Positions 36,980 through 57,920 of a DNA stretch of 64,000 nt are shown here, piece by piece. Below the pieces are notes generated by a model. It did not search any database and was not told the DNA's origin. It saw nothing but the letters and a program-made list of their open reading frames with translations. Source of the DNA: Cupriavidus taiwanensis (GTDB lineage Bacteria; Pseudomonadota; Gammaproteobacteria; Burkholderiales; Burkholderiaceae). How positions within the stretch are numbered: the stretch's first letter is position 1; each line of letters opens with the position of its first letter. Location: NCBI RefSeq assembly GCF_900249755.1, contig NZ_LT976854.1, positions 1,960,927-2,024,926 on the forward strand, written 5' to 3'. Both the position numbers and the translations under genes were made by a program.

Positions 36980-36995
36980 GTCTGCGGCTTCCGTA

Positions 36996-38267
36996 TCAGT
37001 GTCCGAGGATGCGGTCGATGCTGGCCGCGGCGTCATAGGTGCGGGCCAGCACGTCCAGGTAGCGGATGCGCGCCTGGAACAGCGTGCGCTGGGCGTCCAG
37101 CACGTCGAGGAAATTGAACTTGCCCGCCTCGAAGCCGCGCGAGGCGGCGGCGTAGGCCTGCTCGGCGGCGGGCAGCACCGAAGCCTGCAGCGTCTGCGCC
37201 GCGGCGCGGGACACCGACAGCTGCGTCGACGCCTGCTTCAGTTCGCCCTGCAGGCGCACGCGCGTGGCGGCGTGCGCGTCCTGCGCGCCGTCGGCGCGGC
37301 GCAGCGCCGCGTACAGGTTGCCCTGGTTGCGGTCGAACAGCGGCAGCGGAATCGCCACGCCGAGCACCGCCATGTTGCGGTTGGCCTCGTTGTCGCGCTT
37401 GGCGCCCAGGCTCACGGTCACGTCGGGATACTGGCGGCTGCGCTGCACCGCCACGTCGGCACGGCTGCGCTCCGCCGCCAGGCGGCTGGCTTCGAGCAGC
37501 GGCGAGTCTTCCAGCGCCGCCTGCAACGCCGCCGGCGCGGGCCGCGACGGCAACGCATCCAGATCGCCCCGGGCCTGCGCAAAGCGCGGCACGCTATCGC
37601 CCCACAGCGCCGCCAGCGACTGCCGCGCGGACTGCAGCGCGCCGGTGGCCTCGGCCAGCTCCAGCTCGGCGTTGGCCTGCTCCACCCGGGCGCGCGTGGC
37701 TTCCAGCGGCGCGACCTTGCCGGCGGCCACGCGCCGGCCGGCGGCGTCGGCGGCCTGGCTGGCGATGCCGACCGAACCCTCGGCCAGCCTGACGCGCTCC
37801 TGCGCCACCAGCACGCCGAAGAAGCGCGCGATCACCGCGGCGCGCAGCTCGGCGCGGGTGCTGCCCAGCTCCGCCTGCGCCAGCTCGCGGCCGCGCTCGG
37901 CCAGGCCGATGCGGGCGGCGCGCTTGCCGCCCAGTTCGATCGGCAGGTTGACCTGGCCGGTGGTCGAGCGCGACGCCTTGCGCGTGTCTTCCATCGACAC
38001 GGCCAGTTCCGGATTGGGCAGCACGCGCGACTGGACCAGGTCGCCTTCGGTGGCGTCAAGCTCCTTGCCGGCGGCGGACAGCGTGAAGCTGCCGGCTTCG
38101 GCCAAGGCCAGTGCGGCGTCGAGTGTCAGTGTCCCGGCGGGCTGCGGCTCTTCAGCCGGTGGTGCAGCCGGTGGCAGCGCCACGGCGGCGGGCGGCGTCT
38201 GCGCAACGCCGGGGAAAGGGCTGGATAACAGGGCCGCCAGCCCGAGCGGCAGCAAAAGTCTTCGCAT
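36996..38267 (-). CDS. czcC: Outer-membrane efflux factor (CzcC, TolC family)
   Basis: The 423-residue protein has a signal peptide (ending GVAQ), then two TolC-type repeats with long helices (LVQSRVLPNPELAVSMEDTRK, VNLPIELGGKRAARIGLAERG; AIPLPLFDRNQGNLYAA). The closing segment GFEAGKFNFLDVLDAQRTLFQARIRYLDVL is diagnostic for CzcC-like factors. It forms the outer-membrane exit duct. Confidence 0.92.
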   Translation of the reverse strand: MRRLLLPLGLAALLSSPFPGVAQTPPAAVALPPAAPPAEEPQPAGTLTLDAALALAEAGSFTLSAAGKELDATEGDLVQSRVLPNPELAVSMEDTRKASRSTTGQVNLPIELGGKRAARIGLAERGRELAQAELGSTRAELRAAVIARFFGVLVAQERVRLAEGSVGIASQAADAAGRRVAAGKVAPLEATRARVEQANAELELAEATGALQSARQSLAALWGDSVPRFAQARGDLDALPSRPAPAALQAALEDSPLLEASRLAAERSRADVAVQRSRQYPDVTVSLGAKRDNEANRNMAVLGVAIPLPLFDRNQGNLYAALRRADGAQDAHAATRVRLQGELKQASTQLSVSRAAAQTLQASVLPAAEQAYAAASRGFEAGKFNFLDVLDAQRTLFQARIRYLDVLARTYDAAASIDRILGH

Positions 38268-38311
38268 CGAATTGCACCAGAAGAATCGGGGGAATTCGGC
38301 GAGACGCCCGG

Positions 38312-38329
38312 CGTCATGCGCTCATGACG
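38312..38329. promoter_or_regulatory. Inverted repeat between czcI and czcC
   Basis: CGTCATG (38312-38318) and CATGACG (38323-38329) form a perfect 7-bp inverted repeat 45 bases upstream of czcC; it runs on into the palindrome TGACGTCA (38325-38332). It could be an operator for a metal-responsive regulator or a small RNA hairpin. Confidence 0.35.
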
Positions 38330-38369
38330 TCAGGATGCGATCAACGGGGATCGGGAAGCGGGGAAGCGT

Positions 38370-38392
38370 CGTCTCGCCGGCTAGGCGAGACG
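38370..38392 (-). terminator. Hairpin over the czcI stop codon (attenuator candidate)
   Basis: A perfect 9-bp stem, CGTCTCGCC (38370-38378) with GGCGAGACG (38384-38392), encloses a 5-nt loop that contains the czcI stop TAG. No U-run follows. It would separate a short czcI transcript from full czcICBA mRNA, or be opened by ribosomes finishing czcI. Confidence 0.5.
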
Positions 38393-38755
38393 CGGCCACT
38401 GCGGGCGGTCGGGCGCACGTGCGCTGTGCGAGGAGAAGCTGGGCTGCGGCACCGGCGGCGCCAGTTCCACGCGGCGCAGCGCAGGCACGTCCTGCGCATC
38501 GGCCCGCGCGAACGGCAGCGAGGCGATATGGCAGACGCCGCAGTCGGGATCGGCCAGGTTCAGCTTGGCCTTGTCCGGCGCAGGATCGGCTTGCTGCGCC
38601 TGCTTGCCGTTGCCGGCCTCGTGCCGGTGTTCATGGTGGCCGAAATGCGCCTTGGCCGACACCTCAACCTCATGCCCGCAATACGCGGCGGCTCCCGCCC
38701 AGGCGAACTGGAGCGGCAGGACGAGCGCAAGGAAGACAAGGAAGAGGCGTTGCAT
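38381..38755 (-). CDS. czcI: CzcI-like metal-resistance leader protein
   Basis: The 124-residue protein has a signal peptide (MQRLFLVFLALVLPLQFAWA), a CGHE motif, a His-rich stretch (HFGHHEHRHE, about 39-48) and a DCGVCH pair of cysteines. It matches CzcI/CnrX-region periplasmic proteins that accompany Czc pumps and tune their expression. A TTG one codon upstream is the alternative start. It is the first gene of the operon, 113 bases before czcC. Confidence 0.8.
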   Translation of the reverse strand: MQRLFLVFLALVLPLQFAWAGAAAYCGHEVEVSAKAHFGHHEHRHEAGNGKQAQQADPAPDKAKLNLADPDCGVCHIASLPFARADAQDVPALRRVELAPPVPQPSFSSHSARAPDRPQWPRLA

Positions 38756-39031
38756 CAATCGTGGGATCTGGCTGCGGCATGACGATCCGGGCGCCGGCAG
38801 CGAGTCGCAAGTTTAACCGAGGCGAAGCGGGCATTCCGGCAACGGGGTCATTACATTTGCGTCATGCCATCGGCGCTTTGCTGCCCTCCCTGCATATTCA
38901 GAATTTTTGAATAACTTGTCCGGCAAAGCGCCCGCTTACCCGGCTCATGGACTCCTATAGTTCCGTACATGAACGGCACGCACACACCGCAAAGCCTTCT
39001 GACAAATTCAACGAACTAACGGAGAACCACC

Positions 39032-39376
39032 ATGACCAAGACCACCCGCCTCGCTTCCGCGCTGCTCCTGACGCTGGCCGCACTTGGCGCCGCCCAAGCC
39101 GCCACCGCCGCCGACAGGCTGCCCGGCGACAAGTACGGCTACAGCTTCCGCAGCACCGTGCCGGGCGACAAGTATGGTTATGAATTCCGCAGCCACGACG
39201 CCTTCACCGACGGCGCCCGCACAGGCAACGCCGATCCCTACACCGACGGTGCCCGCACCGTGGCCGGCCTGGACCGCAGCGGCGTGTCGGCATCGCCTAC
39301 GCGCAGCTTCGACGCCTTCACCGAAGGCAGCCGCGCCGGCAAGTTCGATCCCTACGGTGAAGGTGCGCACGCCTGA
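39032..39376 (+). CDS. Secreted small protein with internal repeats, unknown function
   Basis: No known family is recognised. A signal peptide (about 1-26, ending AATA) is followed by an 88-residue mature part built of two repeat types: PGDKYGYxFRS twice (about 31-41 and 44-54) and DAFT(D/E)G(A/S)RxGxxDPY twice (about 56-70 and 94-108). It is rich in Asp, Gly, Tyr and Arg, has no cysteine, and is probably periplasmic or secreted. It is convergent with an ECF sigma/anti-sigma pair. A 6-bp dyad, TATTCA-N7-TGAATA, lies upstream at 38895-38913. Confidence 0.7.
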   Translation: MTKTTRLASALLLTLAALGAAQAATAADRLPGDKYGYSFRSTVPGDKYGYEFRSHDAFTDGARTGNADPYTDGARTVAGLDRSGVSASPTRSFDAFTEGSRAGKFDPYGEGAHA

Positions 39377-39400
39377 GCGGCCAGCACCGCACGCCAGACG

Positions 39401-39428
39401 AGAAGGCCAGCGCAAGCGCTGGCCTTCT
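39401..39428. terminator. Bidirectional terminator, 13-bp perfect stem
   Basis: AGAAGGCCAGCGC (39401-39413) pairs perfectly with GCGCTGGCCTTCT (39416-39428). On the plus strand the stem ends in TTCT followed by GTC; on the minus strand the same applies. It sits exactly between the convergent repeat-protein and anti-sigma genes. Confidence 0.7.
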
Positions 39429-39429
39429 G

Positions 39430-39645
39430 TCATTCGTCGCGCCCCAGCCGGTGCATCGCCTCGCGCAGCGTGCGCATCTGCGCGCTGAAGCGGGTGCAGG
39501 CATCGCAGATCGCCAGGTGCGAGCGCATGCGCAGCCGCTCCGTCCAGGACAGCGGCAGGTCCAGGCTCTTCATGGTCAGGTGGTGGACCTCTTCGCAGTC
39601 CGGCAGCAGCCGGCGCGGGGAGCGGGAGGGTGGGGTTTCCGGCAT
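39430..39645 (-). CDS. Putative anti-sigma factor, zinc-finger type
   Basis: The 71-residue protein has a zf-HC2-like zinc site (DCEEVHHLTMKSLDLPLSW, then RSHLAICDACTRF with HxxxCxxC). Such proteins bind and hold back ECF sigma factors in response to redox or metal stress. It lies 40 bases after the sigma gene and has no membrane segment, so it would be soluble. Confidence 0.78.
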   Translation of the reverse strand: MPETPPSRSPRRLLPDCEEVHHLTMKSLDLPLSWTERLRMRSHLAICDACTRFSAQMRTLREAMHRLGRDE

Positions 39646-39685
39646 GTAGGTCAGTGGCGGTACGGTTGCGTGGGCATGGAAGGGC

Positions 39686-40279
39686 TCAACCCGCCTTGCC
39701 GGGCCGGCCGCGCTGGCCGAACCAGTGCAGCTCCAGGCATTCGCGCAGGCGCATGCGGGCACGGTACAACATGGCCCAGGCATTGGTCGCGCTGATCTGC
39801 AAATGCTGACAGATTTCCTCGGTGTCCAGCTCCAGCCATTCCCGCATCATGAAGATGCGGCCCGCGCGCGGCGGCAGGCGGTCCACGCATAGCTGCAGGA
39901 TCTCGAAGAACTCGCGGCGCTCGAACGCGCGCTCCGGGTCGCCCCAGTCGGTGGGCGGATCCTGGTAGTGGCCGTTGCGCGTGAACAGGGCATCGAAGGC
40001 ATCGTCGTCGGACTGCGGCTGGCCGTCGCCGTCGGCGGCCAGCGCCAGCCTGACTTCGCGCTTGCCTCTGCGCAGCGCGTCGATGATCTTGTGCTTCAGG
40101 ATGCCGACCAGGTAGGTGCGCAGCGCCGACTGGCCGGCAAAGCGCTCCGGATGCTCGAGCGCCGCCAGCAGCGTTTCCGAGACCGCATCCTCGGCCACCG
40201 CCTCATCGCGCAGCTGCAGGCGCGCGAAGCGCAACAGGTAGGGGCGCAGCGCGTGGAGGTCGGCGGGGTCGAGGCTCAT
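39686..40279 (-). CDS. ECF-type RNA polymerase sigma factor
   Basis: The 197-residue protein has region 2 (LRPYLLRFARLQLRDEAVAEDAVSETLLAAL, SALRTYLVGILKHKIIDALRR) and region 4 (LPPRAGRIFMMREWLELDTEEICQHLQISATNAWAMLYRARMRLRECL). The Asp-rich linker contains an acidic insert. It is followed by its candidate anti-sigma. The target promoters are unknown; the nearby secreted repeat protein and czc operon are the obvious first candidates to test. Confidence 0.88.
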   Translation of the reverse strand: MSLDPADLHALRPYLLRFARLQLRDEAVAEDAVSETLLAALEHPERFAGQSALRTYLVGILKHKIIDALRRGKREVRLALAADGDGQPQSDDDAFDALFTRNGHYQDPPTDWGDPERAFERREFFEILQLCVDRLPPRAGRIFMMREWLELDTEEICQHLQISATNAWAMLYRARMRLRECLELHWFGQRGRPGKAG

Positions 40280-40415: not shown

Positions 40416-42146
40416 CTAGCCGTTCAAGCCGGCGTAACCCTCTTTGCACAGTTGCAGCAGGGTTTCCAGTTCATTGCCGTGGCCGAGCCCCGTCACCTTC
40501 AGGTCGGCATCCTCCAGGCCGCCCTCGCGCTGGGCTTGTCGCTTGAGGCCCACCACAATGGTGTCGTAGGCCATTAATCGCTGGCCGATCTGGAACCCGA
40601 TCTTGGCCAGCGCCTTGGCATACAGCCCCGCAACGACATCGTCGCGCTTGCGTGCATTGATCGAGGCAAACAGTTCGCTCAGTTCGGTCAGCTCATACTT
40701 CACCAGAACGCCGATCGACAACAGCGTTGCCTTGACCACGCGATTATCGAAACTACCCCGCCCGCGCAGAGCCAGATAAGCAGTCCTGAGCGTGTCGTAC
40801 TGGCTGCGGTCGTAGCGCCCCTTGCGCAAATCGCTCTTCATTGTCTTGGCGAGCGCCCGCGCGCTGTCTTCGGCCTTGTCCTCCGATACCACCTTGACCT
40901 TGGTGAGGACCGTGTTGGCAAAGCGCTTCGCCTTGGTGGTCTTGTCATGCTGCGTCACGTGGACCACGGGCATCGGGTAGTCGGGCGCCGGCCGCGCCGC
41001 GAGCGCGAGCAGCGCCTCCTTCCAGTCGCGATAGGCGCCGTAGGCCAGTGCGTTTGCAAGCCCCGAGGCGGTGTCTGGCGGTTCTTCCATCGTCATGAGT
41101 TGCGCGAAGCGGCTCTTGACCTTGAAGACTGAGTAGTCCATGCCCTCAACGTTCTGGCACGCCTTCAGTGTCTTGAGCAGCGACTCCGATGTACCGGTCG
41201 GCGATTTCAGTTCCTGTACCAGTTGCCTCATCGTTTCGCGCACCTGCGGTGCAATGTCCGTTGCCAGATCCCTGAAGGTATCGGCGTAGTCGCCAGATAC
41301 CTCCTCGAGTGATACGCCGCCACTACTGACGGCGTGTTCAAGCAAGATTTGCGCGATTCGTGCCTCCAGCTCTGTACCAAGCAACTCCGACATGCTCGGC
41401 TGGTATGGCGCCGGAAAGATCTGCTTCTCCGCGATATTCCACCCGGTGCCTGCGCCTAGCAGTTCCCCTCCCAGGATGGCAGTGCGGTAAAGATCTTCTC
41501 GCGTGGGCCTGGCTCCGAGTTGCCCTGGTGCGGAACCGAGGTGTTTTAGCGAAGGAGAAACAACATCATTGTCAATCGGCAAGAAGCGTTGAGCGGCAGC
41601 GTCATAGACAAAATTCCCGGTATGCATCATGTATTCCGTCTGGCCCCTGCCGGGTCGCAGCGAAATCCGATCGAAATTCCCGAGCAACAGATCTGCCGCC
41701 AGCATTCTGGCAAAGTCCCGGCGCACGGTCTCATGCCCGAGTACCTTCGCATCGAGCGACGCCTTTCCGAACTTCTTCCCACGCTCTTTGTCCACATGCT
41801 CCTGGTAAGTGCCGTTCCCGCCCACGTGCTGCAGCACGACCAGATCGTCCCCCTGCCCTACCCTCGCGCGCATCTGCGCCAGGACACCGCGTGCAGCCGG
41901 GAACCGTGCATCCAGAGCGTCGAGGACACCGGACGCATCCTGCCGTGCGACCAGAAGCACGCCCTGGTTCTCGAAGCCGACACGCTCCATCACCTTGCCG
42001 GCAAAGACAATGCGTGCGCCGCCCGGTGCCGCCTTGAGCCAGGCGGTTCCCCCGCCGTTCAGCGTCATCTGGATGACTGGATTGGCAGTCGTCTCTCCCC
42101 GTGGCGTGAGACCGGTGACGTCGGCCCAGTCGAAGTCGAATGGCAT
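40416..42146 (-). CDS. Putative T6SS cargo with atypical kinase-like (PI3/PI4K-like) motifs
   Basis: No named family is certain. In the N-terminal half of this 576-residue protein I see a kinase-like series: WLK (K38), an ADLLLGNFDR loop (151-160, D159 as likely catalytic base), N178 in HTGNFVYD, and LPIDNDVVSPSLKH (D192 as likely metal ligand). This order, N-x-DR ... N ... IDN, is that of PI4-kinase and actin-fragmin-kinase-like folds. The C-terminal 330 residues are helical and unrecognised. There is no signal peptide. It is the last gene of the T6SS operon, 50 bases after tssA, with AAGGAGCC before the ATG. GC and codon use look lower than neighbours. No immunity-type gene follows. Confidence 0.6.
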   Translation of the reverse strand: MPFDFDWADVTGLTPRGETTANPVIQMTLNGGGTAWLKAAPGGARIVFAGKVMERVGFENQGVLLVARQDASGVLDALDARFPAARGVLAQMRARVGQGDDLVVLQHVGGNGTYQEHVDKERGKKFGKASLDAKVLGHETVRRDFARMLAADLLLGNFDRISLRPGRGQTEYMMHTGNFVYDAAAQRFLPIDNDVVSPSLKHLGSAPGQLGARPTREDLYRTAILGGELLGAGTGWNIAEKQIFPAPYQPSMSELLGTELEARIAQILLEHAVSSGGVSLEEVSGDYADTFRDLATDIAPQVRETMRQLVQELKSPTGTSESLLKTLKACQNVEGMDYSVFKVKSRFAQLMTMEEPPDTASGLANALAYGAYRDWKEALLALAARPAPDYPMPVVHVTQHDKTTKAKRFANTVLTKVKVVSEDKAEDSARALAKTMKSDLRKGRYDRSQYDTLRTAYLALRGRGSFDNRVVKATLLSIGVLVKYELTELSELFASINARKRDDVVAGLYAKALAKIGFQIGQRLMAYDTIVVGLKRQAQREGGLEDADLKVTGLGHGNELETLLQLCKEGYAGLNG

Positions 42147-48273: not shown

Positions 48274-49602
48274 TCAGCCCTTGACGAACAGCAGCATTTC
48301 CTGCGGCCGCTGCACGCTCGCGCCTTCATTGGGGTTGCCGATCACCATCGCCTCGCCGGCGTGGACCAGCGCGGGATCGGCCTCGATCTCGAACAACAGG
48401 TAGCCCGAGCCCGAGCGCACCCCGAGCTCCTCGGCATGCTCGACCACGCGGCGCGCCGCGCCCAGCACGCGCCGCGCGCGCAGCGACGGGTAGACCGATT
48501 GCGAGCCGAGCACCGCGCCCGCCATCCAGGCCAGCAGGTCGCGCTCGGACTGCCCGCGCAGGCCCACCACCAGGCGCTCGCCGATCCATTCCGGCTGCAG
48601 CACGATGTCGAAGGCGCCGTGGCGGAACTCGAACTTGTGCTCGCGGTATTCCTCGCTGACCTCGGCCAGCGCCTCGCGCAGCGCGCGCAGCAGCGGCGTG
48701 AACACCGCCATCGGATCGGCGTGGTCGTAGTCGTCCGGCACCGGCGGCAGCCCGCCCGGCTTGAGCAGGCTGAGCGGGCCCAGCACCGAGGCCAGCGCCA
48801 GGTACAGCGCCAGCGGGTGCAGGTGCGGGGTGCGCAGCACCGCTTCCAGCAGCGGCAGCGCACTGACCAGGCTGCGCAGGCGGTCCTTCAGTTCGAGCTG
48901 CGTCAGGCGGTCGTCGGCCCGCGACGACGGGATTGCGGTCTGCCTGGCGACGAAGGCCGCCTTGCCGCGCAGCTGCGCCACCAGCGTGGCCACCGCCGTC
49001 CACAGCGGGCTGCCGCGCGCCACCTCCAGCAACGGCGGCAGGCGCTCGCCCAGCCGCACGATCTCGTTGTCCTTGTAGAGCGCGCCCAGGCACAGCGACA
49101 CAAAGCGCGGCGACGGCCGGGGGCCCGCGTCGAGCGCCAGGTTAGGCAGCAGCCGCGGGATCTCGGCGGGCGGGGCCTCGGACACTTCATCCTCGACCAG
49201 CGCGTCGGCCACGGAGCGGAAGCGCCTGGCCTGACCGTCGCCGCGCTGGGACGGCACCACCGGCAGCGTCAGGTGCAGGTCGAGCATGCCGGCTGCGAGC
49301 GCCCCGGCAAACGGCTCGAGCGTCAGTTCCAGCGGCGGCTGGCGCGCGTCGTCGCGCGTGTACGAGACCGCGGTGCCGTCCGGCATGATGGCTTCGAGCT
49401 GCAGCACGCGCACCACCCCCGCGGCCAGCAGCCCGGCATCGAACTCCAGCCGGCGCACGCCCCAGCCGAACGGGCTGGCCGCCAGCGTCTGCCAGGCCAC
49501 CAGCGAGTCCAGGCGGCCCGCAAGCTGCTGCAGATGCTGCGGCGCGAGCAGCATGCCCTCGTGCCATTCGACGCGATCGACCGGCAGCGTGCATTCAGGC
49601 AT
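48274..49602 (-). CDS. tssK: T6SS baseplate protein TssK
   Basis: The 442-residue protein has the TssK start (VEWHEGMLLAPQHLQQ) and conserved internal segments (LYLALASVLGPLSLL, FDIVLQPEWIGERLVVGLRG). TssK bridges the baseplate and the membrane complex. Length is as expected. It is 45 bases downstream of tssJ. Confidence 0.95.
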   Translation of the reverse strand: MPECTLPVDRVEWHEGMLLAPQHLQQLAGRLDSLVAWQTLAASPFGWGVRRLEFDAGLLAAGVVRVLQLEAIMPDGTAVSYTRDDARQPPLELTLEPFAGALAAGMLDLHLTLPVVPSQRGDGQARRFRSVADALVEDEVSEAPPAEIPRLLPNLALDAGPRPSPRFVSLCLGALYKDNEIVRLGERLPPLLEVARGSPLWTAVATLVAQLRGKAAFVARQTAIPSSRADDRLTQLELKDRLRSLVSALPLLEAVLRTPHLHPLALYLALASVLGPLSLLKPGGLPPVPDDYDHADPMAVFTPLLRALREALAEVSEEYREHKFEFRHGAFDIVLQPEWIGERLVVGLRGQSERDLLAWMAGAVLGSQSVYPSLRARRVLGAARRVVEHAEELGVRSGSGYLLFEIEADPALVHAGEAMVIGNPNEGASVQRPQEMLLFVKG

Positions 49603-49647: not shown

Positions 49648-50145
49648 TCATTGGGTGACCAGCACGGTAAAGGCGGCGCTGTCGAGCTGCACGGCAAGCG
49701 TGCCGTTGAACTGCTCGATGCGGGCACGGTGCGCGCCCGGCGCCTGGTAGTTGGCAAAGACAAAGGCCGCGGCCACGCGCGGGCCCTGCAGCGCTTGCGC
49801 GGCAATTTCCAGCCGCTGGCCGGGCACCAGTTCCCAGCTGCGGTAGCGCAGCGCGCCCGGATAGGTGCTGCCGAGATCGCCGCGCCCGGCAAACCACTTG
49901 GCCGCCGGCAGTTCCGCCAGGCGCGCCTGCAGCGCCGCGTCGCTGACCAGCACCACGTCGACCGCCACCGGGCTGTTGCCGTTGGCATCGTCGGCCGCGG
50001 TCAGCGTGACCTGCTTCCAGTTGACCTTGTCGCCCTTGAAGCCCAGCCACGAGGCCGCGGCGCAGCCTCCCAGCAGCGCCGCCAGCCACAGCGTCGCCAG
50101 CCAGCGCAGCGCCAGGCGCATCCGAGCTTGTGCATGCGCTGTCAT
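49648..50145 (-). CDS. tssJ: T6SS outer-membrane lipoprotein TssJ
   Basis: The 165-residue protein has a lipoprotein signal (LLGGC, Cys28) and the TssJ beta-sandwich: VNWKQVTLTAADDANGNSPVAVDVVLVSD, ALQARLAELPAAKWFAGRGDL and the late RIEQFNGTLAVQLDSAAFTVLV. TssJ anchors TssM to the outer membrane. The ATG at 50145 overlaps the symporter stop (ATGA), so it is translationally coupled to the amino-acid module. Confidence 0.88.
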   Translation of the reverse strand: MTAHAQARMRLALRWLATLWLAALLGGCAAASWLGFKGDKVNWKQVTLTAADDANGNSPVAVDVVLVSDAALQARLAELPAAKWFAGRGDLGSTYPGALRYRSWELVPGQRLEIAAQALQGPRVAAAFVFANYQAPGAHRARIEQFNGTLAVQLDSAAFTVLVTQ

Positions 50146-51590
50146 TTCGCCCCCACGCCGATGCCCATCAGCACGATCAGCAGCGCCGCCAGCAGCGCGC
50201 AGGCGCCGGCCAGCGCCAGTTGCATGCGCGTCAGCACCAGCCGCACCGCGGCCGCCGCTCCGGTCACGCCGCCGCGAACCACTGCCCCCGGCACCGTTGG
50301 CCGCGCCTGGACCGCGCGCTCCAGCGGCAGGCCCACCGACACCAGCGCGATCACCGCGCAGGTGCAGACCAGGCTCAGTGCATTGCGCGGGCCATCGCAG
50401 ACCGGGTCGATCGCCAGCAGCAGCACCGCCGCGGCCTCCGCCGGCAACTGCAGCGCCGACAGCGCGACGCCCGCGTAGGCGATGGTCCCGATACCGCCCT
50501 GCCCGGCCGACAGCCACGCCGCCAGCGCGGCCGCCAGCGTGATCCACGCCAGCTCGCCGGCAGTGATGGGGCGCCCATAGAGGTTGGCGACGAACACCGT
50601 CACCAGCGCGAAGTACAGCGCCGCGCCGCCGCGCACGAACACCGCGCCCAGCGGCACCACCAGTTCCACCAGCCCGCGCGGGAAGCCCAGCCGCGCGCTC
50701 ATGGCCTCGATGGCGTGGGGGATCGGCGCGGTGGCGCTGCCCGAGGCCAGGCCGACCAGCATGGCCCGGTTCAGCTCGGTCACCACCTGCAGCAAGGGCA
50801 GCCGCGCGCAGCGCGCGATCACGGCCGCGGCGGCGCCGCTGAGCAGCAGGCACAGCACCAGGAAGGTCGCCAGCAGCGCGGCCATGGCGCCGATCGCGGC
50901 GCGGTCCGCATGCATCGCCAGGTGTGCGGCCAGCCCGAAGGCCAGCACCGGGATCAGCAGGTTGGCGTGGGCGATGATCTGCTCGAAGGTGCGGTAGATG
51001 CCTTCGAACACATTGCCCAGCATGCTGGTCTGCTCGCGCGACAGCGCCGCGAAGGCCAGCCCGAACAGCAGCGTCCCGGTCAGCACGCCCAGGGTCTGGC
51101 CGTGCGCCAGCGCGCGGTAGAAGTTGTCGGGGATGATCGCGGCGAGCGCATCCGTGGCCTGCCCGCGCTCCGCGCCAGGCGCGGCGCCGCCCTGCAGGTC
51201 CACGCGCACCTCGCCGCCGCCGGCCACGCCGCTGAGGATCAGCGCGCCCAGCCTGGCGCTGGCGTCGGCCGGCAGCGCCGCGCCCGGCGCCATCAGCACC
51301 CCCGCCAGCGCGCCCGCCAGCGCGCATGCGGCCACCACCGCGGCGGCCGTGCCGACGATCGCGCCAAAGCGCGCGCCCGCGCGCGGCAGCGCCAGCACCT
51401 GGCGCAGGCCGAAGAAGGTGGCCACCACCAGCAGCGGCACCGCCGCCATGTTGACCACCGACAGGTACAGCTGCCCGGCCAGCCACGCAAGGCGGCCCAG
51501 CGGCGCGGCCACGGTGCCGGCCAGCGCGCCCGCCACCAGGCAGGCGAGCAGCCCGGGCACGCTGTGCGAGAGCCAGTGCAGGGCTTTCAT
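50142..51590 (-). CDS. Dicarboxylate/amino-acid:cation symporter (DAACS family), T6SS-linked
   Basis: The 482-residue membrane protein has the DAACS pattern: LSVVNMAAVPLLVVATFFGLRQVL, an IIPDNFYRALAHGQTLGVL segment, a SGSATAPIPHAI hairpin in place of the usual SSSAATLP, and the substrate-site LLLAIDPVCDGPRNALSLV. Relatives take up glutamate, aspartate or C4-dicarboxylates with protons or sodium. ATGA overlaps join it to the racemase before it and tssJ after it. Substrate is inferred. Confidence 0.85.
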   Translation of the reverse strand: MKALHWLSHSVPGLLACLVAGALAGTVAAPLGRLAWLAGQLYLSVVNMAAVPLLVVATFFGLRQVLALPRAGARFGAIVGTAAAVVAACALAGALAGVLMAPGAALPADASARLGALILSGVAGGGEVRVDLQGGAAPGAERGQATDALAAIIPDNFYRALAHGQTLGVLTGTLLFGLAFAALSREQTSMLGNVFEGIYRTFEQIIAHANLLIPVLAFGLAAHLAMHADRAAIGAMAALLATFLVLCLLLSGAAAAVIARCARLPLLQVVTELNRAMLVGLASGSATAPIPHAIEAMSARLGFPRGLVELVVPLGAVFVRGGAALYFALVTVFVANLYGRPITAGELAWITLAAALAAWLSAGQGGIGTIAYAGVALSALQLPAEAAAVLLLAIDPVCDGPRNALSLVCTCAVIALVSVGLPLERAVQARPTVPGAVVRGGVTGAAAAVRLVLTRMQLALAGACALLAALLIVLMGIGVGAK

Positions 51591-52309
51591 GCGGCCTGGT
51601 TCCAGCCGCGCGCCAGCGCGAACGCCACCGTCGCGCGGGCCAGCTCGGTGGTGCTGTCGACCAGCCGCAGCGGCGCCGCGGCCAGCCCGCGCGCCGCCAC
51701 CGGGATTTCGGTGCAGCCCATGATGGCGGTGCCGACCCCCAGCGCGGCGATGCGCGCCAGCGCGCTGCCAAGCGCCGCGGCGGCCGGCTCCAGCGCACCG
51801 GCCTTGACCGCCTGGATGCAGGCATCGACTTGCTTCTGCACCGGCTCGGGCGGCACTACGGCGTCGATCCCGCGCGCGGCCAGCGCCGCCTGGTAGATGC
51901 CGGCGGCAAGCGCGCCGCGCGTGGCCAGCACCGCGACGCTGCCGCTGTCGGCCGGCAGCGCCGCCACGCAGGTGCGCGCGATATGCAGGATGGGCGCGGC
52001 GCTGTGCGCGCTCAGCTCGGCATACCAGTGGTGCGAGGTATTGCAGGGGATCGCCACCAGCCCGACCTGGCTGCGGTTGAGCAGCTCGATGCCGTGCAGC
52101 AGGTAGGGCAGCGGCAGCGCGTCGCCGGCCAGGATCGAGCGCGAGCGGTCCGGCGTCTGCGGCAGGTGCGCCACCACCATCGGCAGGTGGTCCTGGTCGC
52201 GCGCGGCATCGGTAAGGCGCACCACGCGCTCGAGGAAATCGACCGTGGCCAGCGGCCCCATGCCGCCCAGCACCCCGATCATGGTCATGCCGGTGCTTAC
52301 GCTGTTCAT
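51587..52309 (-). CDS. Aspartate/glutamate racemase-family protein, T6SS-linked
   Basis: The 240-residue protein has the two-cysteine active site of cofactor-free racemases: C89 in AIPCNTSHHW and C199 in MGCTEIP, with the N-terminal GVLGGMGPLATVDF that marks the YgeA/broad-specificity aspartate/glutamate racemase branch. It would interconvert L- and D-amino acids in the cytoplasm. It starts nine bases after one symporter and its stop overlaps the start of the next. The amino acid is not established. Confidence 0.87.
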   Translation of the reverse strand: MNSVSTGMTMIGVLGGMGPLATVDFLERVVRLTDAARDQDHLPMVVAHLPQTPDRSRSILAGDALPLPYLLHGIELLNRSQVGLVAIPCNTSHHWYAELSAHSAAPILHIARTCVAALPADSGSVAVLATRGALAAGIYQAALAARGIDAVVPPEPVQKQVDACIQAVKAGALEPAAAALGSALARIAALGVGTAIMGCTEIPVAARGLAAAPLRLVDSTTELARATVAFALARGWNQAA

Positions 52310-52318
52310 GATGACGGC

Positions 52319-53689
52319 CTAGAGTTTGAGCGGACGCGGGCAGATCACCGACACCGCCGCGGTATTGCCGACCACCAGGATCAGCGTGCGCAGCATGTCG
52401 CAGACCGGGTCCACGGCCAGGAAGAGAATGAAGGCCGCCTCGAACGGCAGGCCCAGGTAGGCGCAGGTCATGCCCACCAGCGATACGATCACCAGCCCGG
52501 TCATGCCGGCCGAGGCAAAACCCGCCAGCACCGACGCCAGCAGCACCGTGGCGATATCCAGCAGCCCCAGCGGATGCCCGTACAGCTGTGCGATAAAGAG
52601 CGTGGCGCAGACGTAGTACACCATCGGCCCGACGCGCAGCAGCGAGATCGCCAGCGGCACCAGCAGCTCCACCCGCACGCGCGCGAAGCCGAGCCGGTCC
52701 ACCAGGCACTCGATCATGCTGGGCATGCACGCCGCGCTGTTGCGCGTCGCCAGCGCCAGCGCGAACGGGGAGCGCAGCGCGTCCAGCGTGGCGCCCAGGC
52801 TCTGGCCGGAGCGCTTCCACAGCACCACCACCGCCAGCGCCAGCAGCAGCACCGACGCGACGAAGAACGCCAGCACGAACTGCATCATGGCGTGCAGCGG
52901 CTCCAGCCCGGACTTGCCCAGCTGCGCCGCGCTCATGCAGAACAGGATCAGCGGCAGCGGGTAGCTGAGCCAGTGCATCAGCTTCTGGCAGGCGTGGTAG
53001 ACCGTCTCCAGCGACAGGCTCAGCCCGATCGAGATGCGCTCGGGCACGCGCCCCACGGCCAGCCCGAACATCAGCGCGAACACCAGCGCCTTGAGCGCAT
53101 CGCCATTGGCCAGCGCGGCGAAGATGTTGGTCGGGATCAGGCTGGTCAGCACCTCGGACAGGCTCAGCGATTTCTCCGGGATATCCTCGCCGTACAGGTT
53201 CATCACCGTGTCGCCCGACCTGGCATCGTTGCCGACCATCGCGCCAAAGGTCTGCATGGTGGCCTCGGACAGCTCGCTGCCCGGGCGCATCGCCACCAGC
53301 ACCAGCGCCGACACCAGCGCCACCAGCAGCGACGCGCCGGCGAACACCGCCACCACGCGGATCATCAGGCGCGAGGCGCCGCCGTCGCGGAACAGCCGCT
53401 GCAGGCTGAAGATCACCGCCGACACCATGAACGGCAGCGTGGTCATCTTGAGCAGGTCCACGTAGATGTCGCCGACCACGCCCAGGTGCCGCGCCAGCCC
53501 GGGCCACAGCAGCCCGGTGGCGCCGCCCAGCACCAGGCTGCCGATCACCACCCACGGGTTGAGCGCGATGGCGTAGAGCCTGGCCGCGTCCAGCTTCAGC
53601 GGCGGCGTGCGCGGTGCCCGGGCTGCGCCCGGCCTGGTCGCGGGCTCGGTTGCGGGCTTGATTGCGGGCTTGATTGCGGGCGTGCTCAT
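52319..53689 (-). CDS. Dicarboxylate/amino-acid:cation symporter (DAACS family), T6SS-linked
   Basis: The 456-residue paralogue of the symporter at 50142 has an N-terminal Pro/Ala-rich extension of about 35 residues, then IYVDLLKMTTLPFMVSAVIFSLQRL, LIPTNIFAALANGDALKALVFALMFG, RNSAACMPSMIECL in place of SSSAATLP, and FLAVDPVCDMLRTLILVVGN. The ATG overlaps the binding-protein stop. The altered hairpin motifs in both symporters suggest a substrate other than plain glutamate. Confidence 0.87.
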   Translation of the reverse strand: MSTPAIKPAIKPATEPATRPGAARAPRTPPLKLDAARLYAIALNPWVVIGSLVLGGATGLLWPGLARHLGVVGDIYVDLLKMTTLPFMVSAVIFSLQRLFRDGGASRLMIRVVAVFAGASLLVALVSALVLVAMRPGSELSEATMQTFGAMVGNDARSGDTVMNLYGEDIPEKSLSLSEVLTSLIPTNIFAALANGDALKALVFALMFGLAVGRVPERISIGLSLSLETVYHACQKLMHWLSYPLPLILFCMSAAQLGKSGLEPLHAMMQFVLAFFVASVLLLALAVVVLWKRSGQSLGATLDALRSPFALALATRNSAACMPSMIECLVDRLGFARVRVELLVPLAISLLRVGPMVYYVCATLFIAQLYGHPLGLLDIATVLLASVLAGFASAGMTGLVIVSLVGMTCAYLGLPFEAAFILFLAVDPVCDMLRTLILVVGNTAAVSVICPRPLKL

Positions 53690-54657
53690 CGCGCGGCCGC
53701 CTGCAGCACGTCAGCGACCTCGAGCCGTCTGGGCCGCTCGGCGAGGAACTGGTTGACGAAGCCCAGCAGCGCCGGCGCCGAGACATTGACGGCGATGCCC
53801 AGCGTGTCCTCCAGGTCCTGCAGCGTCACCACGCGCAGCCGCAGTGCCGCGGTCGGGTCCGCCTTGAGCACGCGCTTGACCTCGAACTCGTCGCGGTAGA
53901 CCGCGGCGACGCGGCCGTCGTTGAGCGCCTTCAGCGCTTCGTCCCAGGTGGGATAGGCGGTCACATAGGCCTTGGGAAAATTGTTCACCACGTACTCCGA
54001 GTAAGACGAATTGCCGACCACGCCGATCGAGCTGTCATAGCCGCGGATCACCTCCGGCACCGGCCGGCCGCGCGCCATCTGCGCGAACCTGACGCGGTTG
54101 AGCAGCAGCGCGCGATTGAGCCGCAGGTAAGGAATGCTGAAGCTGATGATCTGCATGCGCGGCAGCGTGCGCGACAGCTTGCTGATGGCCACGTCGGCCT
54201 GCCCCTGCGCCAGCAGCCGCACCACGCCGTCGAAGGTGGTGGCGTCGCGGTTGAAGCGCACCCGCACGTTGAGCTTCTGCGCCAGCTCGCGGGCGAGGTC
54301 GATGTCGAGGCCGCTCAGCTCGCCATTGCGCTGCTGGAAGAACGGCGGCTGGTCCACCTTCAGCACCGCCACCACCAGCTCGCCGCGGCTGACGATGCGG
54401 GCGAATTCCGGCGCCATCAGCCGTCCGTCCGGCATCAGCACGAGCCCGTTCGGCGTGGCGACGGGTGCCGGCGCGGGCGCGCTGTCGGGCGCGGGCGCCG
54501 GCGATGGCAGGTAGTTGCCCTGCGCATGGCCGGCGAGCGGCAGCAGCAGCGCCGCGCCCGCGAGGGCGCGCGCCAGCCAGCGCCATGCGCGCGCGGCGCC
54601 ACGGCGGGAAAGACAGGCAGGATTCAAAAGCATGGCTTTGCGTAGGTCATGTTTCAT
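53686..54657 (-). CDS. Periplasmic amino-acid-binding protein (SBP family 3), T6SS-linked
   Basis: The 323-residue protein has a signal peptide (about 22-45, ending GHAQG), a Pro/Ala linker, then a family 3 solute-binding fold: RIVSRGELVVAVLKVDQPPFF, GLDIDLARELAQKLNVRVRFN, ADVAISKLSRTLPRMQIISFSIPYL and VAAVYRDEFEVKRVL. No ABC permease or ATPase is nearby, which is odd; it may serve the symporters or act as a sensor. It is coupled on both sides by ATGA overlaps. Confidence 0.87.
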   Translation of the reverse strand: MKHDLRKAMLLNPACLSRRGAARAWRWLARALAGAALLLPLAGHAQGNYLPSPAPAPDSAPAPAPVATPNGLVLMPDGRLMAPEFARIVSRGELVVAVLKVDQPPFFQQRNGELSGLDIDLARELAQKLNVRVRFNRDATTFDGVVRLLAQGQADVAISKLSRTLPRMQIISFSIPYLRLNRALLLNRVRFAQMARGRPVPEVIRGYDSSIGVVGNSSYSEYVVNNFPKAYVTAYPTWDEALKALNDGRVAAVYRDEFEVKRVLKADPTAALRLRVVTLQDLEDTLGIAVNVSAPALLGFVNQFLAERPRRLEVADVLQAAAR

Positions 54658-54884
54658 GGCGTCGCGGGCGCAGGGGCCGCGGCGGCGAGGCCCGTCGTGG
54701 CGACGGCACCCTGGGTGGCGGGCGCCGCCGCGATTTGCGCCGCAACCTGCGCCGCATCGGGAGCCGGCCGCGCCAGGCGCGTGCCGATCTCCACCCCCAT
54801 CAGGAACAGCAGCGCGCACAGCAGCACCGCACAGGTCACGGCGATGGTCACCATGCGCGGGCTCATCGAAAATACATAGGTCAT
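54654..54884 (-). CDS. Small single-pass membrane protein, T6SS-linked, unknown
   Basis: The 76-residue protein has one hydrophobic segment (about 11-31, VTIAVTCAVLLCALLFLMG) and an Ala/Pro-rich tail (40-76), probably in the periplasm. I do not recognise a family. It lies 19 bases after the PAAR-like gene, and its stop overlaps the binding-protein start. It may hold that binding protein or a symporter at the membrane. Confidence 0.65.
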   Translation of the reverse strand: MTYVFSMSPRMVTIAVTCAVLLCALLFLMGVEIGTRLARPAPDAAQVAAQIAAAPATQGAVATTGLAAAAPAPATP

Positions 54885-55292: not shown

Positions 55293-56006
55293 TCAACCCC
55301 TCAGCCAGCGCTCGAGGCGCTGCGCAAAGCCCGCGGGCAGTTCGGTGCCGTCGCCATCGTCGGCCGCTGCCGCCGGTTGCCAGTCTTCGCGCGGCTTGCC
55401 GGCCGCATAACCCCGCGTCGCCGCCACCTCGCCCGCGGCGCCGAAGCGGCGCGCGACCCCGTGCAGCAACCCGGCGCGGTAGGGCAGCGCCTGCACCAGC
55501 GCACCTCCGGCGCCGTACTCGCGGGTCTCGCCGTCGAGGCGGCCGGCGCGGTAGCGGCTGCGGCGCACCACCGCGCCCTCGTGCGCGTAGACCGCCTCGT
55601 CCTCGAGCCGGCCCTGCCGGTAGAGGCAGCGCGCGGTCACGTCGCCGGACGGCGCGTAGCACACGCTCTCGCCCTCGAGCTGTCCGTGGGCGTGCTGCTG
55701 GCGGGCCTGCAGCCTTCCATCGAGATATGTGGTGCTGATGCCGTGCAGCTGGCCGCCGGCGTAGTGGGCCTCGTACTCGACGCTGCCGTCGGCGGCATAG
55801 GCGCGCAGCAGCCCGGACAGCTCGCCGTGCGCGTACTCAGCATCGAGCCGCAGCGAGCCATCCGGATAAAAGCATTCCAGGCGTCCGTGCGGCCGGCCCG
55901 CGCACAGCGGCACGCGCGACACCAGCCGGCCGTCGCCGTCATGGGTCTCGGCCATGGCGGCGGCAGGATCGGCCGGATCGGGCAGCGCGGGATCGGTCAA
56001 AGGCAT
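55293..56006 (-). CDS. MORN-like repeat protein (YwqK-type), T6SS-linked
   Basis: The 237-residue protein contains about seven MORN-like units of the form G-x-L-x-G-x-x-x-x-Y-x-x-x-G-x-L (for example YAHGELSGLLRAYAADGSVEYEAHY and YAGGQLHGISTTYLDGRLQ). YwqK-like MORN proteins act as antitoxin-like or adaptor proteins. It sits between vgrG and the PAAR-like gene, the place of T6SS loading adaptors. Confidence 0.75.
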   Translation of the reverse strand: MPLTDPALPDPADPAAAMAETHDGDGRLVSRVPLCAGRPHGRLECFYPDGSLRLDAEYAHGELSGLLRAYAADGSVEYEAHYAGGQLHGISTTYLDGRLQARQQHAHGQLEGESVCYAPSGDVTARCLYRQGRLEDEAVYAHEGAVVRRSRYRAGRLDGETREYGAGGALVQALPYRAGLLHGVARRFGAAGEVAATRGYAAGKPREDWQPAAAADDGDGTELPAGFAQRLERWLRG

Positions 56007-56018
56007 GGTCGGCTCCGC

Positions 56019-57920
56019 TCAGTTCAGTTTCACCAGGGCGCCCTTGAGTTCGAGCATGCCGCCGCTTTCCACCGTCTGCGCGGCGGACGCCTTCTGCCGC
56101 ACCATCATCGCTTCGTGGCTCAGCGTGGTGCCGGCCTTGCTGCTGAGCGTGGTGCCGGCCTCGCACTGCAGGGACGTGCCGGCCTTGAACGAAATCGATC
56201 CGCCGACCTCGATTACCAGGTTGCCCTGCACCGTGAGCTTGTAGTTGCCGGCGACGTCGTGGCTGAACGCCGCGCCGCTGGTGTGGGTCTCGCCGCCGCC
56301 GGCCTCGACCTGGCGCGTGCCGCTGACCTTGTGGGTCTCGTTGCCGGAGGCCACCTCCAGCGCCAGGTCGCCGGACTTGATGCGATGCGATTCGCCGCCG
56401 GCTTCGACCGTGGTCGACAGCGTGTTTTCCACCGACACCGTCATCGCGCGCTGGGCGCGCAGGTACAGTTCCTCGGCGCCGGCCTTGTCTTCCATGCGCA
56501 GCTCGTTGCCGGCGCTGCCGCCCTTGGACGAACGCGAACGGATCACGCTTTGCGTCTGCATCGCGGGCAGCGGCACCGGCACACCCGACTGCCCGTTGTA
56601 GACGCTGCCGGTCACCAGCGGCCGGTCGGGGTCGCCGTCGACATAGCTGACCACCACCTCCTGGCCCACGCGCGGCAGGAACAGCTGGCCCCAACCTGCG
56701 CCGGCGGCGGCCTGCGCCACGCGGACCCAGCACGAGCTGTCCTGGTTGGCGCCGGGGCTGCGGTCCCAGTGGAACTTCACCTTGATGCGGCCGTGCGCGT
56801 CGGTCCAGATTTCTTCACCGGCGGAGCCCGCCACCGTGGCGGTATGCGTGCCGGCCACCAGCGGCCGGGGCGTGGCGAGCGGCGCGCGGAACGGCACCGA
56901 CAGCGGCAGCACCGCGACCGTATTGCGATAGCTGTCGCCGCTGCAGGCATGCTCGACCGCGCGCACCACGTAGGCGCGGTCCAGCGCCGGGTCGACGTGG
57001 CCGGCCAGCGTGAAGCGGATGCCCGCGGCCAGGTGGCAGCACGCGCTCTCGCCCACGCCGGTGTGGGCCTCGGCCTGCTGCGCGCCGCTGCGCACGGCGG
57101 CCTTGCGGCTGGCGTCGTCGGCGTCGCGGTGCCGGCCCGGGAACACGTACTGCTGCGCCAGGTCTCCCGTGCCCGCCGGCGCGCTGCCCTGCGAAGTGCG
57201 CGCCTGCAGGTAGTCGTAGTCGGCCAGCACCTGCGTGGCCGCGCCGAGCTGCCGCGCCATGCCGAAGGCCAGCATGCGCGCCGCGCCGGCCGGCGGGCGC
57301 GCCATGCCGTCCATCGCCAGGTCGGCGCAGTGCGTGCCAGCCGGATGCGCGGAGGGGCTGTCGGCCAGCACCATGGTGTGCGCGCCGTCGGCAAAGGTGA
57401 AGAAGTAGAAGATGCCCTCTTCCTCCATCAGCCGCGAGATAAAGCTGAACGGGCTTTCGTCGTACTGCACGCAGTATTCGCGCACCGGATAGCGCGTCTC
57501 TGTAAGGCGCGCCTCGAACGCGACGTCGAAGGCCTGCAGCACGCGGCGGATGATCTGCGGCGCGGACAGGTTCTGGTAGATGGCGCGGTCGCGCCCGAGC
57601 GTGAGCAGCCACAGCCGCGGCGCCAGCTCCGCGCTGTAGAAGCCGTGCTGGTGGTCCGCGCCGGTGTGGGCAAAGCGCGTGACGATGCCGTTCAGGTACC
57701 GCGGCGCGCCGTCCGGGTGCCGCAGCGTGATGCTCAGGCGCTGGCCGACGATGCGCCCCGCATCCAGCCCCTTGTCCGACGAACGCATGCGCAGGCTGAA
57801 GCGGAATGGCTCGGAGATCGCCTCGCGCCCGGCGAAGCCGTCCAGCCGCAGCACGTCGCCGCCGAAGGGCGTGGCCAGCGTGGCGAAGTTGCCGGCCTGC
57901 GTGGCCAGTTTCGGGATCAT
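56019..57920 (-). CDS. vgrG: T6SS spike protein VgrG (TssI)
   Basis: The 633-residue protein has the gp27-like N-terminal region (LRLDGFAGREAISEPFRFSL; ESPFSFISRLMEEEGIFYFF), the gp5-type OB segment (RIKVKFHWDR, WGQLFLPRVGQEVVVSYVDGDPDRPLVTGSVYNG) and a C-terminal beta helix ending at about residue 630. There is no extra C-terminal effector domain, so cargo must be carried separately. The ATG follows clpV by three bases. Confidence 0.95.
   Translation of the reverse strand: MIPKLATQAGNFATLATPFGGDVLRLDGFAGREAISEPFRFSLRMRSSDKGLDAGRIVGQRLSITLRHPDGAPRYLNGIVTRFAHTGADHQHGFYSAELAPRLWLLTLGRDRAIYQNLSAPQIIRRVLQAFDVAFEARLTETRYPVREYCVQYDESPFSFISRLMEEEGIFYFFTFADGAHTMVLADSPSAHPAGTHCADLAMDGMARPPAGAARMLAFGMARQLGAATQVLADYDYLQARTSQGSAPAGTGDLAQQYVFPGRHRDADDASRKAAVRSGAQQAEAHTGVGESACCHLAAGIRFTLAGHVDPALDRAYVVRAVEHACSGDSYRNTVAVLPLSVPFRAPLATPRPLVAGTHTATVAGSAGEEIWTDAHGRIKVKFHWDRSPGANQDSSCWVRVAQAAAGAGWGQLFLPRVGQEVVVSYVDGDPDRPLVTGSVYNGQSGVPVPLPAMQTQSVIRSRSSKGGSAGNELRMEDKAGAEELYLRAQRAMTVSVENTLSTTVEAGGESHRIKSGDLALEVASGNETHKVSGTRQVEAGGGETHTSGAAFSHDVAGNYKLTVQGNLVIEVGGSISFKAGTSLQCEAGTTLSSKAGTTLSHEAMMVRQKASAAQTVESGGMLELKGALVKLN

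What the first reader, a model, noticed from the sequence alone, without database searches (positions are those of the whole stretch)
50142..54884. Racemase, two amino-acid symporters and a binding protein built into the T6SS operon
Between the spike genes and tssJ lie a periplasmic amino-acid-binding protein, two DAACS symporters flanking an aspartate/glutamate racemase, and a small membrane protein. Four consecutive ATGA overlaps, ending at tssJ, show that they are translated with the T6SS. From established knowledge, in Acinetobacter baumannii a T6SS-linked racemase (RacK) makes a D-amino acid that edits the cell's own peptidoglycan and protects it from its own T6SS peptidoglycan hydrolases. 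By inference, this module could make and recycle a D-amino acid (D-Glu/D-Asp-like) for wall editing, or harvest amino acids from lysed prey. The binding protein has no ABC partner, and both symporters have altered SSSAAT-type hairpins.
Basis: partly seen in the sequence, partly recalled or inferred. Interest (0 to 1): 0.85.

Follow-up and report, generated by a model that had tools for sequence, protein, structure and literature searches.

The report
Amino-acid carrier cassette inside T6SS operon
A bacterial contact-weapon operon carries a small amino-acid-handling cassette already noticed in a relative; here its two carriers turn out to have lost the usual sodium-site residues, the racemase turns out to be optional, and the second carrier ends in a copy of one of the weapon's own small membrane proteins.

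Summary
The genes are real: a binding protein (SBP), two DAACS-family carriers and an Asp/Glu-type racemase lie between a small membrane protein gene and tssJ, with four ATGA overlaps and one 9-nt gap. The layout is already in print for Paraburkholderia phymatum T6SS-b. New here: (1) the unit that stays together is SBP plus carrier 1 (94 of 96 loci), also in genomes without a TssK match; (2) both carriers lost the N-x-D sodium/substrate motif and hold Arg/Lys there (95 of 98 and 72 of 73; 0 of 34 ordinary paralogues), so they are probably not sodium-coupled; (3) the racemase is missing from 19 of 72 T6SS loci and occurs only with carriers keeping the Asp that binds the substrate's amino group (63 of 63); an SBP pocket residue switches with that Asp; (4) the 'small membrane protein' is a T6SS gene and carrier 2 ends in a copy of it. 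Best reading: a periplasm-fed, cation-uncoupled carrier of an acidic amino acid, captured by one Burkholderiales T6SS type. RacK-like wall editing is not supported as the core function.

The parts
54654..54884 (-). small membrane protein (smp, 76 aa): one N-terminal TM ending in GxxxG, Ala/Pro-rich tail; a gene of this T6SS type rather than of the amino-acid module
   Evidence: similar small ORFs between paar and tssJ in sister T6SSs that lack the module, one of them (G362) found blind at E 1.2e-5
53686..54657 (-). periplasmic amino-acid-binding protein (SBP_bac_3, 323 aa) with signal-like N-terminus (by eye); pocket residues S162, T164, R167, D256
   Evidence: Pfam 69.7 bits; alignment A7; beside carrier 1, end distances -81 to 75 nt, in 94 of 96 loci
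52319..53689 (-). carrier 1 (sym1, 456 aa), DAACS/SDF fold; N310-M311-D312 replaced by L351-R352-V353; keeps D431 (D394) and R434 (R397)
   Evidence: model pLDDT 82, best PDB matches GltPh/GltTk/uncoupled ancestor
51587..52309 (-). Asp/Glu-type racemase (240 aa), both catalytic cysteines C89 and C199
   Evidence: Pfam 130.9 bits; C89/C199 invariant in 19 aligned sequences
50142..51590 (-). carrier 2 (sym2, 482 aa), DAACS/SDF fold; R320 at the M311 position, keeps D399 and R402
50145..50270 (-). C-terminal tail of carrier 2 (about residues 441-482, extra TM helix 455-481, GxxxG): a copy of the small membrane protein
   Evidence: hhalign probability 95.1%, score 44.4 against 21.8 for the best window outside the tail, 130 windows of 7 families; found blind by the smp profile in one of 399 genomes
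49648..50145 (-). tssJ position (165 aa, lipoprotein-like by eye), ATGA overlap with carrier 2
   Evidence: no Pfam/NCBIfam hit
48274..49602 (-). tssK
   Evidence: PF05936, 134.6 bits
54904..55290 (-). PAAR-like spike-tip protein (DUF4280)
   Evidence: PF14107, 104.6 bits; start
55293..56006 (-). MORN_2/YwqK-like protein just downstream of vgrG; by gene count the counterpart of TeoL of C. necator JMP134
   Evidence: PF07661; counting inference
56019..57920 (-). VgrG
   Evidence: PF05954/PF04717

Best explanation
A four-gene cassette (SBP, carrier 1, racemase, carrier 2) sits between smp and tssJ of one Burkholderiales T6SS type, probably inserted there as a unit. Shown: gene make-up, orthologues, empty-site relatives, loss of the sodium/substrate motif, covariation of SBP, carrier 1 and racemase, and the smp-like tail of carrier 2. 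Inferred: the SBP catches an acidic amino acid in the periplasm and passes it to carrier 1, which moves it by the GltPh elevator without Na+, an Arg standing where N-M-D coordinates cations. An uncoupled carrier only runs downhill, so the racemase acts as the sink, probably turning a D-acidic amino acid into its L form. Carrier 2 is a sister carrier whose C-terminal copy of the T6SS small membrane protein ties it to the place where smp works, so the amino-acid unit serves, or reports to, this T6SS. In C. necator JMP134 what looks like the same T6SS recruits outer-membrane vesicles, so scavenging is the likeliest setting.
For: SBP beside carrier 1 on the same strand in 94 of 96 loci, against 0 of 36 ordinary DAACS loci by phmmer and 1 of 36 by profile (control flanks only 1.5 kb). 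Arg/Lys at position 311 in 95/98 carrier-1-type and 72/73 carrier-2-type sequences; N310, D312 and N401 present in 34/34 ordinary paralogues and lost in nearly all module carriers; R397 kept in 91/98 and 70/73. Reddy et al. 2025 (passages): the NMD motif takes part in coordinating Na1-Na3 and substrate, D394 the amino group, R397 the side-chain carboxylate; many uncoupled homologues lie beside amino-acid enzymes. D394 is D in 63/63 loci with racemase; all 21 D394A loci lack it; SBP S162 is S in 70 of 70 D394 loci where it can be read and A/G in 21/21 D394A loci. smp-tail homology. Empty sites paar-smp-tssJ in L156-L159 and in L163-L164, whose genomes hold SBP-carrier 1-carrier 2 elsewhere. The 8 free-standing-unit genomes without a TssK match show no second carrier; their best match to carrier 2 lies at carrier 1 itself. 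In Ramlibacter albus SBP + carrier 2 stay in the T6SS while another SBP + carrier 1 + racemase sit elsewhere. T6SS1 of JMP134 has 21 locus tags with TeoL downstream of vgrG; I count 21 genes here with the MORN gene in that place.
Against: I know of no transport, binding or racemase data for any member. The D394/S162 switch rests on about two events (one 20-row clade plus L145), so the large counts are not independent; L147 has V at D394 with S162 kept; SBP D256 stays in 19 of 21 switched loci, which argues against a complete loss of amino-group binding. Five D394 T6SS loci with carrier 2 lack the racemase. A racemase-like gene also lies beside 2 of 36 ordinary DAACS genes, so that pairing is not unique. 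Direction of the insertion is inferred; loss in the empty-site relatives is possible. The JMP134 equivalence is a count, not an alignment. Only 15 of 73 carrier-2 sequences reach E<0.01 with the smp profile singly, though 70 of 73 fit a tail pattern. Cytosolic L-Glu is high (recalled), so an uncoupled carrier could run outwards instead.
Confidence: 0.45

Rival explanations
1. Sensor reading: SBP with carrier 2 (smp tail) is a receptor-like element that senses an acidic amino acid from lysed neighbours or the host plant and adjusts T6SS assembly; carrier 1 and the racemase set the ligand level.
For: Carrier 2 of this type seen only in loci or genomes with this T6SS, also when unlinked; smp-like tail; SBP + carrier 2 alone kept in the R. 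albus T6SS; some free-standing SBP-carrier 1 pairs lie near cyclase-like or kinase-like genes (named by eye); Hug et al. suggested dicarboxylate sensing (passages).
Against: Carrier 2 keeps the substrate residues R397 (70/73) and mostly D/E394 (63/73), as a working carrier would. In P. phymatum the T6SS-b promoter was highest on citrate, constitutive on malate and aspartate, and low on glutamate: no simple acidic-amino-acid induction.
Confidence: 0.25
2. One reading: the racemase makes a D-amino acid that edits the cell's own wall against its own T6SS hydrolases, as reported for RacK.
For: Racemase in the operon in 53 of 72 T6SS loci, catalytic cysteines kept; an uncoupled carrier could export the D form.
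Against: 19 of 72 T6SS loci lack it; it persists with SBP and carrier 1 in genomes without a TssK match (L056, L059, L068); different family from RacK (recalled).
Confidence: 0.08
3. Ordinary amino-acid or cysteate catabolic genes that hitch-hike in the operon without functional link to the T6SS.
For: NCBIfam calls the racemase cysteate racemase CuyB, 214.8 bits against a cut-off of 190; similar cassette without annotated T6SS genes in Gemmobacter.
Against: No TIGR01275 (CuyA-like) match in the genome; order kept over several families; carrier 2 carries a T6SS-type tail and was not found in the 8 genomes without a TssK match.
Confidence: 0.15

Closest known systems
Paraburkholderia phymatum T6SS-b, Bphy_5986-5992 (Hug et al. 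2021, PMC8356804)
   Same: same gene order; the paper lists similar clusters in further strains including Cupriavidus, and a Janthinobacterium cluster without the racemase; carrier 1 79% identical
   Different: the passages and section I read do not mention SBP pairing, loss of the N-M-D motif, covariation or the smp-like tail
GltPh/GltTk and the uncoupled ancestral aspartate transporter (Reddy et al. 2025, PMC12668577, passages read)
   Same: fold, R397 and D394; many uncoupled homologues sit beside amino-acid enzymes
   Different: the ancestral uncoupled protein keeps the N-M-D site; here it is replaced, with Arg in the middle, N401 is lost, and an SBP is next door in 94 of 96 loci
TRAP transporters (SBP-dependent secondary carriers; recalled)
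   Same: periplasmic SBP paired with a secondary elevator-type carrier
   Different: different SBP family and different carrier family
C. necator JMP134 T6SS1 with TeoL (PMC8776902, passages read)
   Same: 21 locus tags, effector gene downstream of vgrG; 21 genes counted here
   Different: equivalence rests on gene counting; the main text does not mention symporters or racemase (0 occurrences)

Membership tests
DAACS/SLC1 (SDF) carriers | sequence family and fold with two hairpins | tested here: met
   PF00375 202.9 and 151.4 bits; models match GltPh/GltTk
DAACS/SLC1 (SDF) carriers | cation-site residues N310, D312, N401 | tested here: not met
   present in 34/34 ordinary paralogues, replaced in nearly all module carriers
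DAACS/SLC1 (SDF) carriers | cation-coupled transport activity | not testable with these tools
   needs flux assay
SBP-dependent secondary transporter (TRAP-like in working) | SBP gene consistently paired with the carrier gene | tested here: met
   94 of 96 loci; 0-1 of 36 controls
SBP-dependent secondary transporter (TRAP-like in working) | carrier and SBP of TRAP families | tested here: not met
   SDF and SBP_bac_3 instead
Asp/Glu racemase superfamily (PF01177) | two catalytic cysteines | tested here: met
   C89, C199 invariant in 19 sequences
Cysteate racemase CuyB (NF052483) | model above cut-off | tested here: met
   214.8 against 190 bits
Cysteate racemase CuyB (NF052483) | CuyA-type pathway partner in the genome | tested here: not met
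   no TIGR01275 match at E<=0.001 in own genome; that TIGR01275 covers CuyA is recalled
RacK-type T6SS self-protection racemase | PLP-type broad-spectrum racemase (recalled) | tested here: not met
   this racemase is PF01177, a cofactor-free family (recalled)
RacK-type T6SS self-protection racemase | altered muropeptides, protection from own effectors | not testable with these tools
   wet test
T6SS-b (i4a) of P. phymatum type | vgrG-MORN/YwqK-PAAR-HP-SBP-carrier-racemase-carrier-tssJ order | tested here: met
   (L022 is the P. phymatum locus)

The most novel reading that the evidence does not exclude
These are members of a not yet named class: SBP-fed elevator carriers of the glutamate-transporter fold in which an Arg replaces the sodium ions, and one of them has been built into a T6SS by acquiring a copy of its small membrane protein, making the secretion machine respond to, or feed on, an acidic amino acid.
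Probability: 0.3. Interest if true: 0.85.

Novelty: new variant of a known kind. Interest (0 to 1): 0.6.

Why it matters
If right, the glutamate-transporter fold has an SBP-dependent, cation-free branch, which bears on how ion coupling arises and is lost, and a T6SS has a built-in metabolite carrier joined to a membrane component. It gives a simple genetic test (tail deletion of carrier 2) of a link between nutrient handling and T6SS function.

Tried and rejected
Cysteate pathway: NCBIfam name CuyB, but no CuyA-like gene. RacK analogy: paper not found in the library. Module as T6SS-only: rejected by free-standing loci. 'Module fixed in every close T6SS': rejected by L163 and L164, TssK 50% identical with an empty site. 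smp as part of the module: rejected. I first thought D405N was diagnostic; ordinary DctA-type paralogues also have N there (33 of 34), so it was dropped. Weak smp-profile hits in G074, G113 and G311 are partial and taken as chance; the sister T6SS genomes G206, G333 and G391 gave no smp match at E<=0.001, their small ORFs being seen by eye only. Side-chain geometry in the models was not measured (no coordinates in the box).

The 98 carrier-1-type sequences include L149 and second copies in a few loci. The 34 ordinary paralogues are the distinct ones of 36 loci, from one genus plus one other genome of the order. Tree caution: several long branches, midpoint root. Some free-standing loci have short flanks on one side (L068 1.1 kb upstream; L090, L091 2.4-3 kb downstream).
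Full report
What is there. On the minus strand, in transcription order after VgrG, a MORN/YwqK-like protein and a DUF4280 PAAR-like protein, lie a 76-aa membrane protein (smp), an SBP_bac_3 protein, a DAACS-type carrier (carrier 1), an Asp/Glu-type racemase, a second DAACS-type carrier (carrier 2), and then the tssJ position, TssK, TssL, TssM and TssA. Four junctions are ATGA overlaps; carrier 1 and the racemase are separated by 9 nt. With the stretch beyond the window (VipA/TssB, VipB/TssC, Hcp, TssE) I count 21 genes from TssB to the 576-aa ORF after TssA. The genome is of the same genus as Cupriavidus sp. P-10 (G024, whose 1,635,938-base contig and match position equal those of NZ_AP025172.1).

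Prior art. Hug et al. 2021 (PMC8356804; passages and the whole of section 12) describe this gene order in P. phymatum T6SS-b, call the two symporters in a T6SS 'intriguing' and not reported before to their knowledge, list further strains including Cupriavidus, and note a Janthinobacterium cluster without the racemase. The P. phymatum carrier 1 is 79% identical to the window's. The listings of my searches showed no other paper on it that I recognised by title and abstract.

Distribution. In a sample of 60 genomes of the genus, 4 including the window's have carrier 1 at 83-100% identity; in 399 genomes of the order, 4 at E<=1e-45; in 398 of the phylum, 9 at E<=1e-31, among them one ordinary DctA-like protein (L149). 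A GTDB scan found 180 relatives and kept the best 80. Together with the window, 2 plasmid records and 13 stretches, 96 loci were compared. The SBP stands beside carrier 1 on the same strand in 94 of 96 (upstream in 93; end distances -81 to 75 nt); the misses are L146 (contig edge) and L149. In 36 ordinary DAACS loci with 1.5-kb flanks an SBP of this kind is found in 0 by phmmer and 1 by profile; a racemase-like match is found in 2 of 36. 75 of 96 loci hold T6SS genes; in 72 both carriers are visible, and of these 53 have the racemase and 19 do not, the two carriers there being only 11-80 nt apart. The query bias makes the T6SS share an upper estimate. Of the 21 loci without a T6SS gene, 18 are informative (not L043, L146, L149): 18 of 18 have the SBP, 8 of 18 the racemase.

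Outside the T6SS. Gemmobacter aquarius has SBP-carrier-racemase-carrier in the same order, downstream of oxidoreductase genes, with no T6SS gene annotated in 25 kb. Twelve loci of the GTDB scan carry SBP-carrier 1, with or without racemase, away from a T6SS. In their genomes, 8 of 12 have no TssK match at E<=1e-5, one only a distant TssK (30%), and three have this T6SS elsewhere. In the 8 genomes the best match to carrier 2 (E<=1e-10) is at carrier 1 itself; one of them has two further weak matches of 45-50 bits (positions checked by arithmetic). Six of the 8 are MAGs, so absence is less sure. The three with a T6SS are telling: Ramlibacter albus keeps smp-SBP-carrier 2-tssJ in the T6SS and a separate SBP-carrier 1-racemase (L055); the two others have smp directly before tssJ (empty site) and SBP-carrier 1-carrier 2 elsewhere (L090, L091). 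Thus SBP-carrier 1(-racemase) can live without the T6SS, while carrier 2 of this type was seen only in loci or genomes with this T6SS. In the tree of carrier 1, Polaromonas and Ramlibacter free-standing rows lie inside T6SS-bearing clades with starred support (100/96, 100/99), so the free unit probably left the T6SS there (long branches and midpoint root noted).

Empty site. TssK with 50% identity or more marks the close T6SSs in the order sample: 4 of 4 have the module. Six genomes with TssK at 32-40% show no match to carrier or SBP profiles in the stretches fetched; in four of them (L156-L159) the order is vgrG-MORN-PAAR-small ORF-tssJKLM. So smp belongs to the T6SS and the module sits between smp and tssJ.

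Carriers. Against PF00375 full-length ordinary paralogues score 331-393 bits, carriers 1 and 2 score 203 and 152. In an alignment of 98 carrier-1-type, 73 carrier-2-type and 34 ordinary sequences, N310, D312 and N401 (GltPh numbering, recalled, and consistent) are invariant in the ordinary ones. The module carriers mostly have Leu/Val-type residues at 310, Arg/Lys at 311 (95/98 and 72/73), no acid at 312, and Leu/Thr/Ser at 401, while R397 stays in 91/98 and 70/73. Reddy et al. 2025 (passages) state that the NMD motif takes part in coordinating Na1, Na2, Na3 and substrate, D394 the amino group, R397 the side-chain carboxylate and N401 the main-chain carboxylate, and that many uncoupled transporters are adjacent to amino-acid enzymes. 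AlphaFold models (mean pLDDT 82 for both) match GltPh, GltTk and the uncoupled ancestor. I infer that the module carriers are not Na+-coupled; I know of no flux data.

Linked changes. D394 is Asp in all 63 loci with racemase; the 21 loci with D394A lack the racemase. SBP S162, in the ligand motif with T164 and R167 (its role recalled from LAO/GlnBP), is Ser in 70 of 70 D394 loci where it can be read (L079 has a fragment) and Ala/Gly in 21 of 21 D394A loci; L147 (V at 394) and L148 (unreadable) have Ser. This supports one shared ligand for SBP, carrier 1 and racemase, and a changed ligand where the racemase is gone. Against: about two evolutionary events only (a 20-row clade and L145); SBP D256 stays in 19 of 21; five D394 T6SS loci with carrier 2 lack the racemase.

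Tail. Carrier 2 has an extra C-terminal TM helix (residues 455-481). The smp profile aligns to it over 44 columns (hhalign 95.1%, score 44.4); of 130 windows from seven families the two best cover this tail and the next scores 21.8; against the whole carrier-2 alignment the tail is again the match, 82.8%. A blind six-frame search of 399 genomes with a profile of 20 smp rows gave 9 matches: five smp genes in genomes with this or the sister T6SS, three weak partial ones, and one (G117, E 1.7e-4) in the C-terminus of carrier 2 next to the T6SS, running a few bases past its stop (position by arithmetic). The tail pattern is in 70 of 73 carrier-2 sequences, 0 of 98 carrier-1-type and 1 of 34 ordinary ones; singly, 15 of 73 reach E<0.01.

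Racemase. Both cysteines are invariant in 19 rows. All 19 match CuyB and TIGR00035, the window's above the CuyB cut-off, but no CuyA-like TIGR01275 gene was found. The genome has a separate MurI-like protein. I therefore read the substrate as an acidic amino acid, unproven.

Setting. T6SS1 of C. necator JMP134 (Reut_A1713-A1733; passages) is Fur-regulated and secretes TeoL, encoded downstream of vgrG, to recruit vesicles; a second paper (passages) adds OxyR control. The count of 21 genes and the place of TeoL fit this operon with TeoL as the MORN gene. This is an inference.

Verdict. A known arrangement with features I found in no paper seen here, and testable. The wall-editing reading is unlikely to be the core function; a periplasm-fed, cation-uncoupled acidic amino-acid unit tied to the T6SS through carrier 2 fits best.

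Noticed in passing
window 55293-56006: MORN/YwqK-like gene after vgrG holds, by gene count, the place of TeoL, the LPS-binding vesicle-recruiting effector of C. necator JMP134.
   Followed up: partly
window 40416-42146: 576-aa ORF after tssA, no Pfam match; possible last gene of the T6SS operon.
   Followed up: no
window 35726-40279: Sigma-70-family (ECF-like) sigma factor gene, outer-membrane efflux and HlyD-type genes next to the T6SS: likely a separate efflux locus.
   Followed up: no
L092, L093, L095, L101: Free-standing SBP-carrier 1 pairs lie near formyltransferase-like, adenylate-cyclase-like, or kinase/response-regulator-like genes (named by eye, no family search).
   Followed up: no
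L021:11076-15312: Gemmobacter plasmid cassette SBP-carrier-racemase-carrier near GMC oxidoreductase genes; its second carrier lost the R397 position.
   Followed up: partly
L145:4330-7935: SBP-carrier unit with a second, divergently oriented DAACS gene beside it.
   Followed up: no
NCBIfam NF052483 (racemase, window 51587-52309): The CuyB (cysteate racemase) model matches all 19 aligned racemases, the window's above its cut-off, in a genome without a CuyA-like match; it may over-call.
   Followed up: partly
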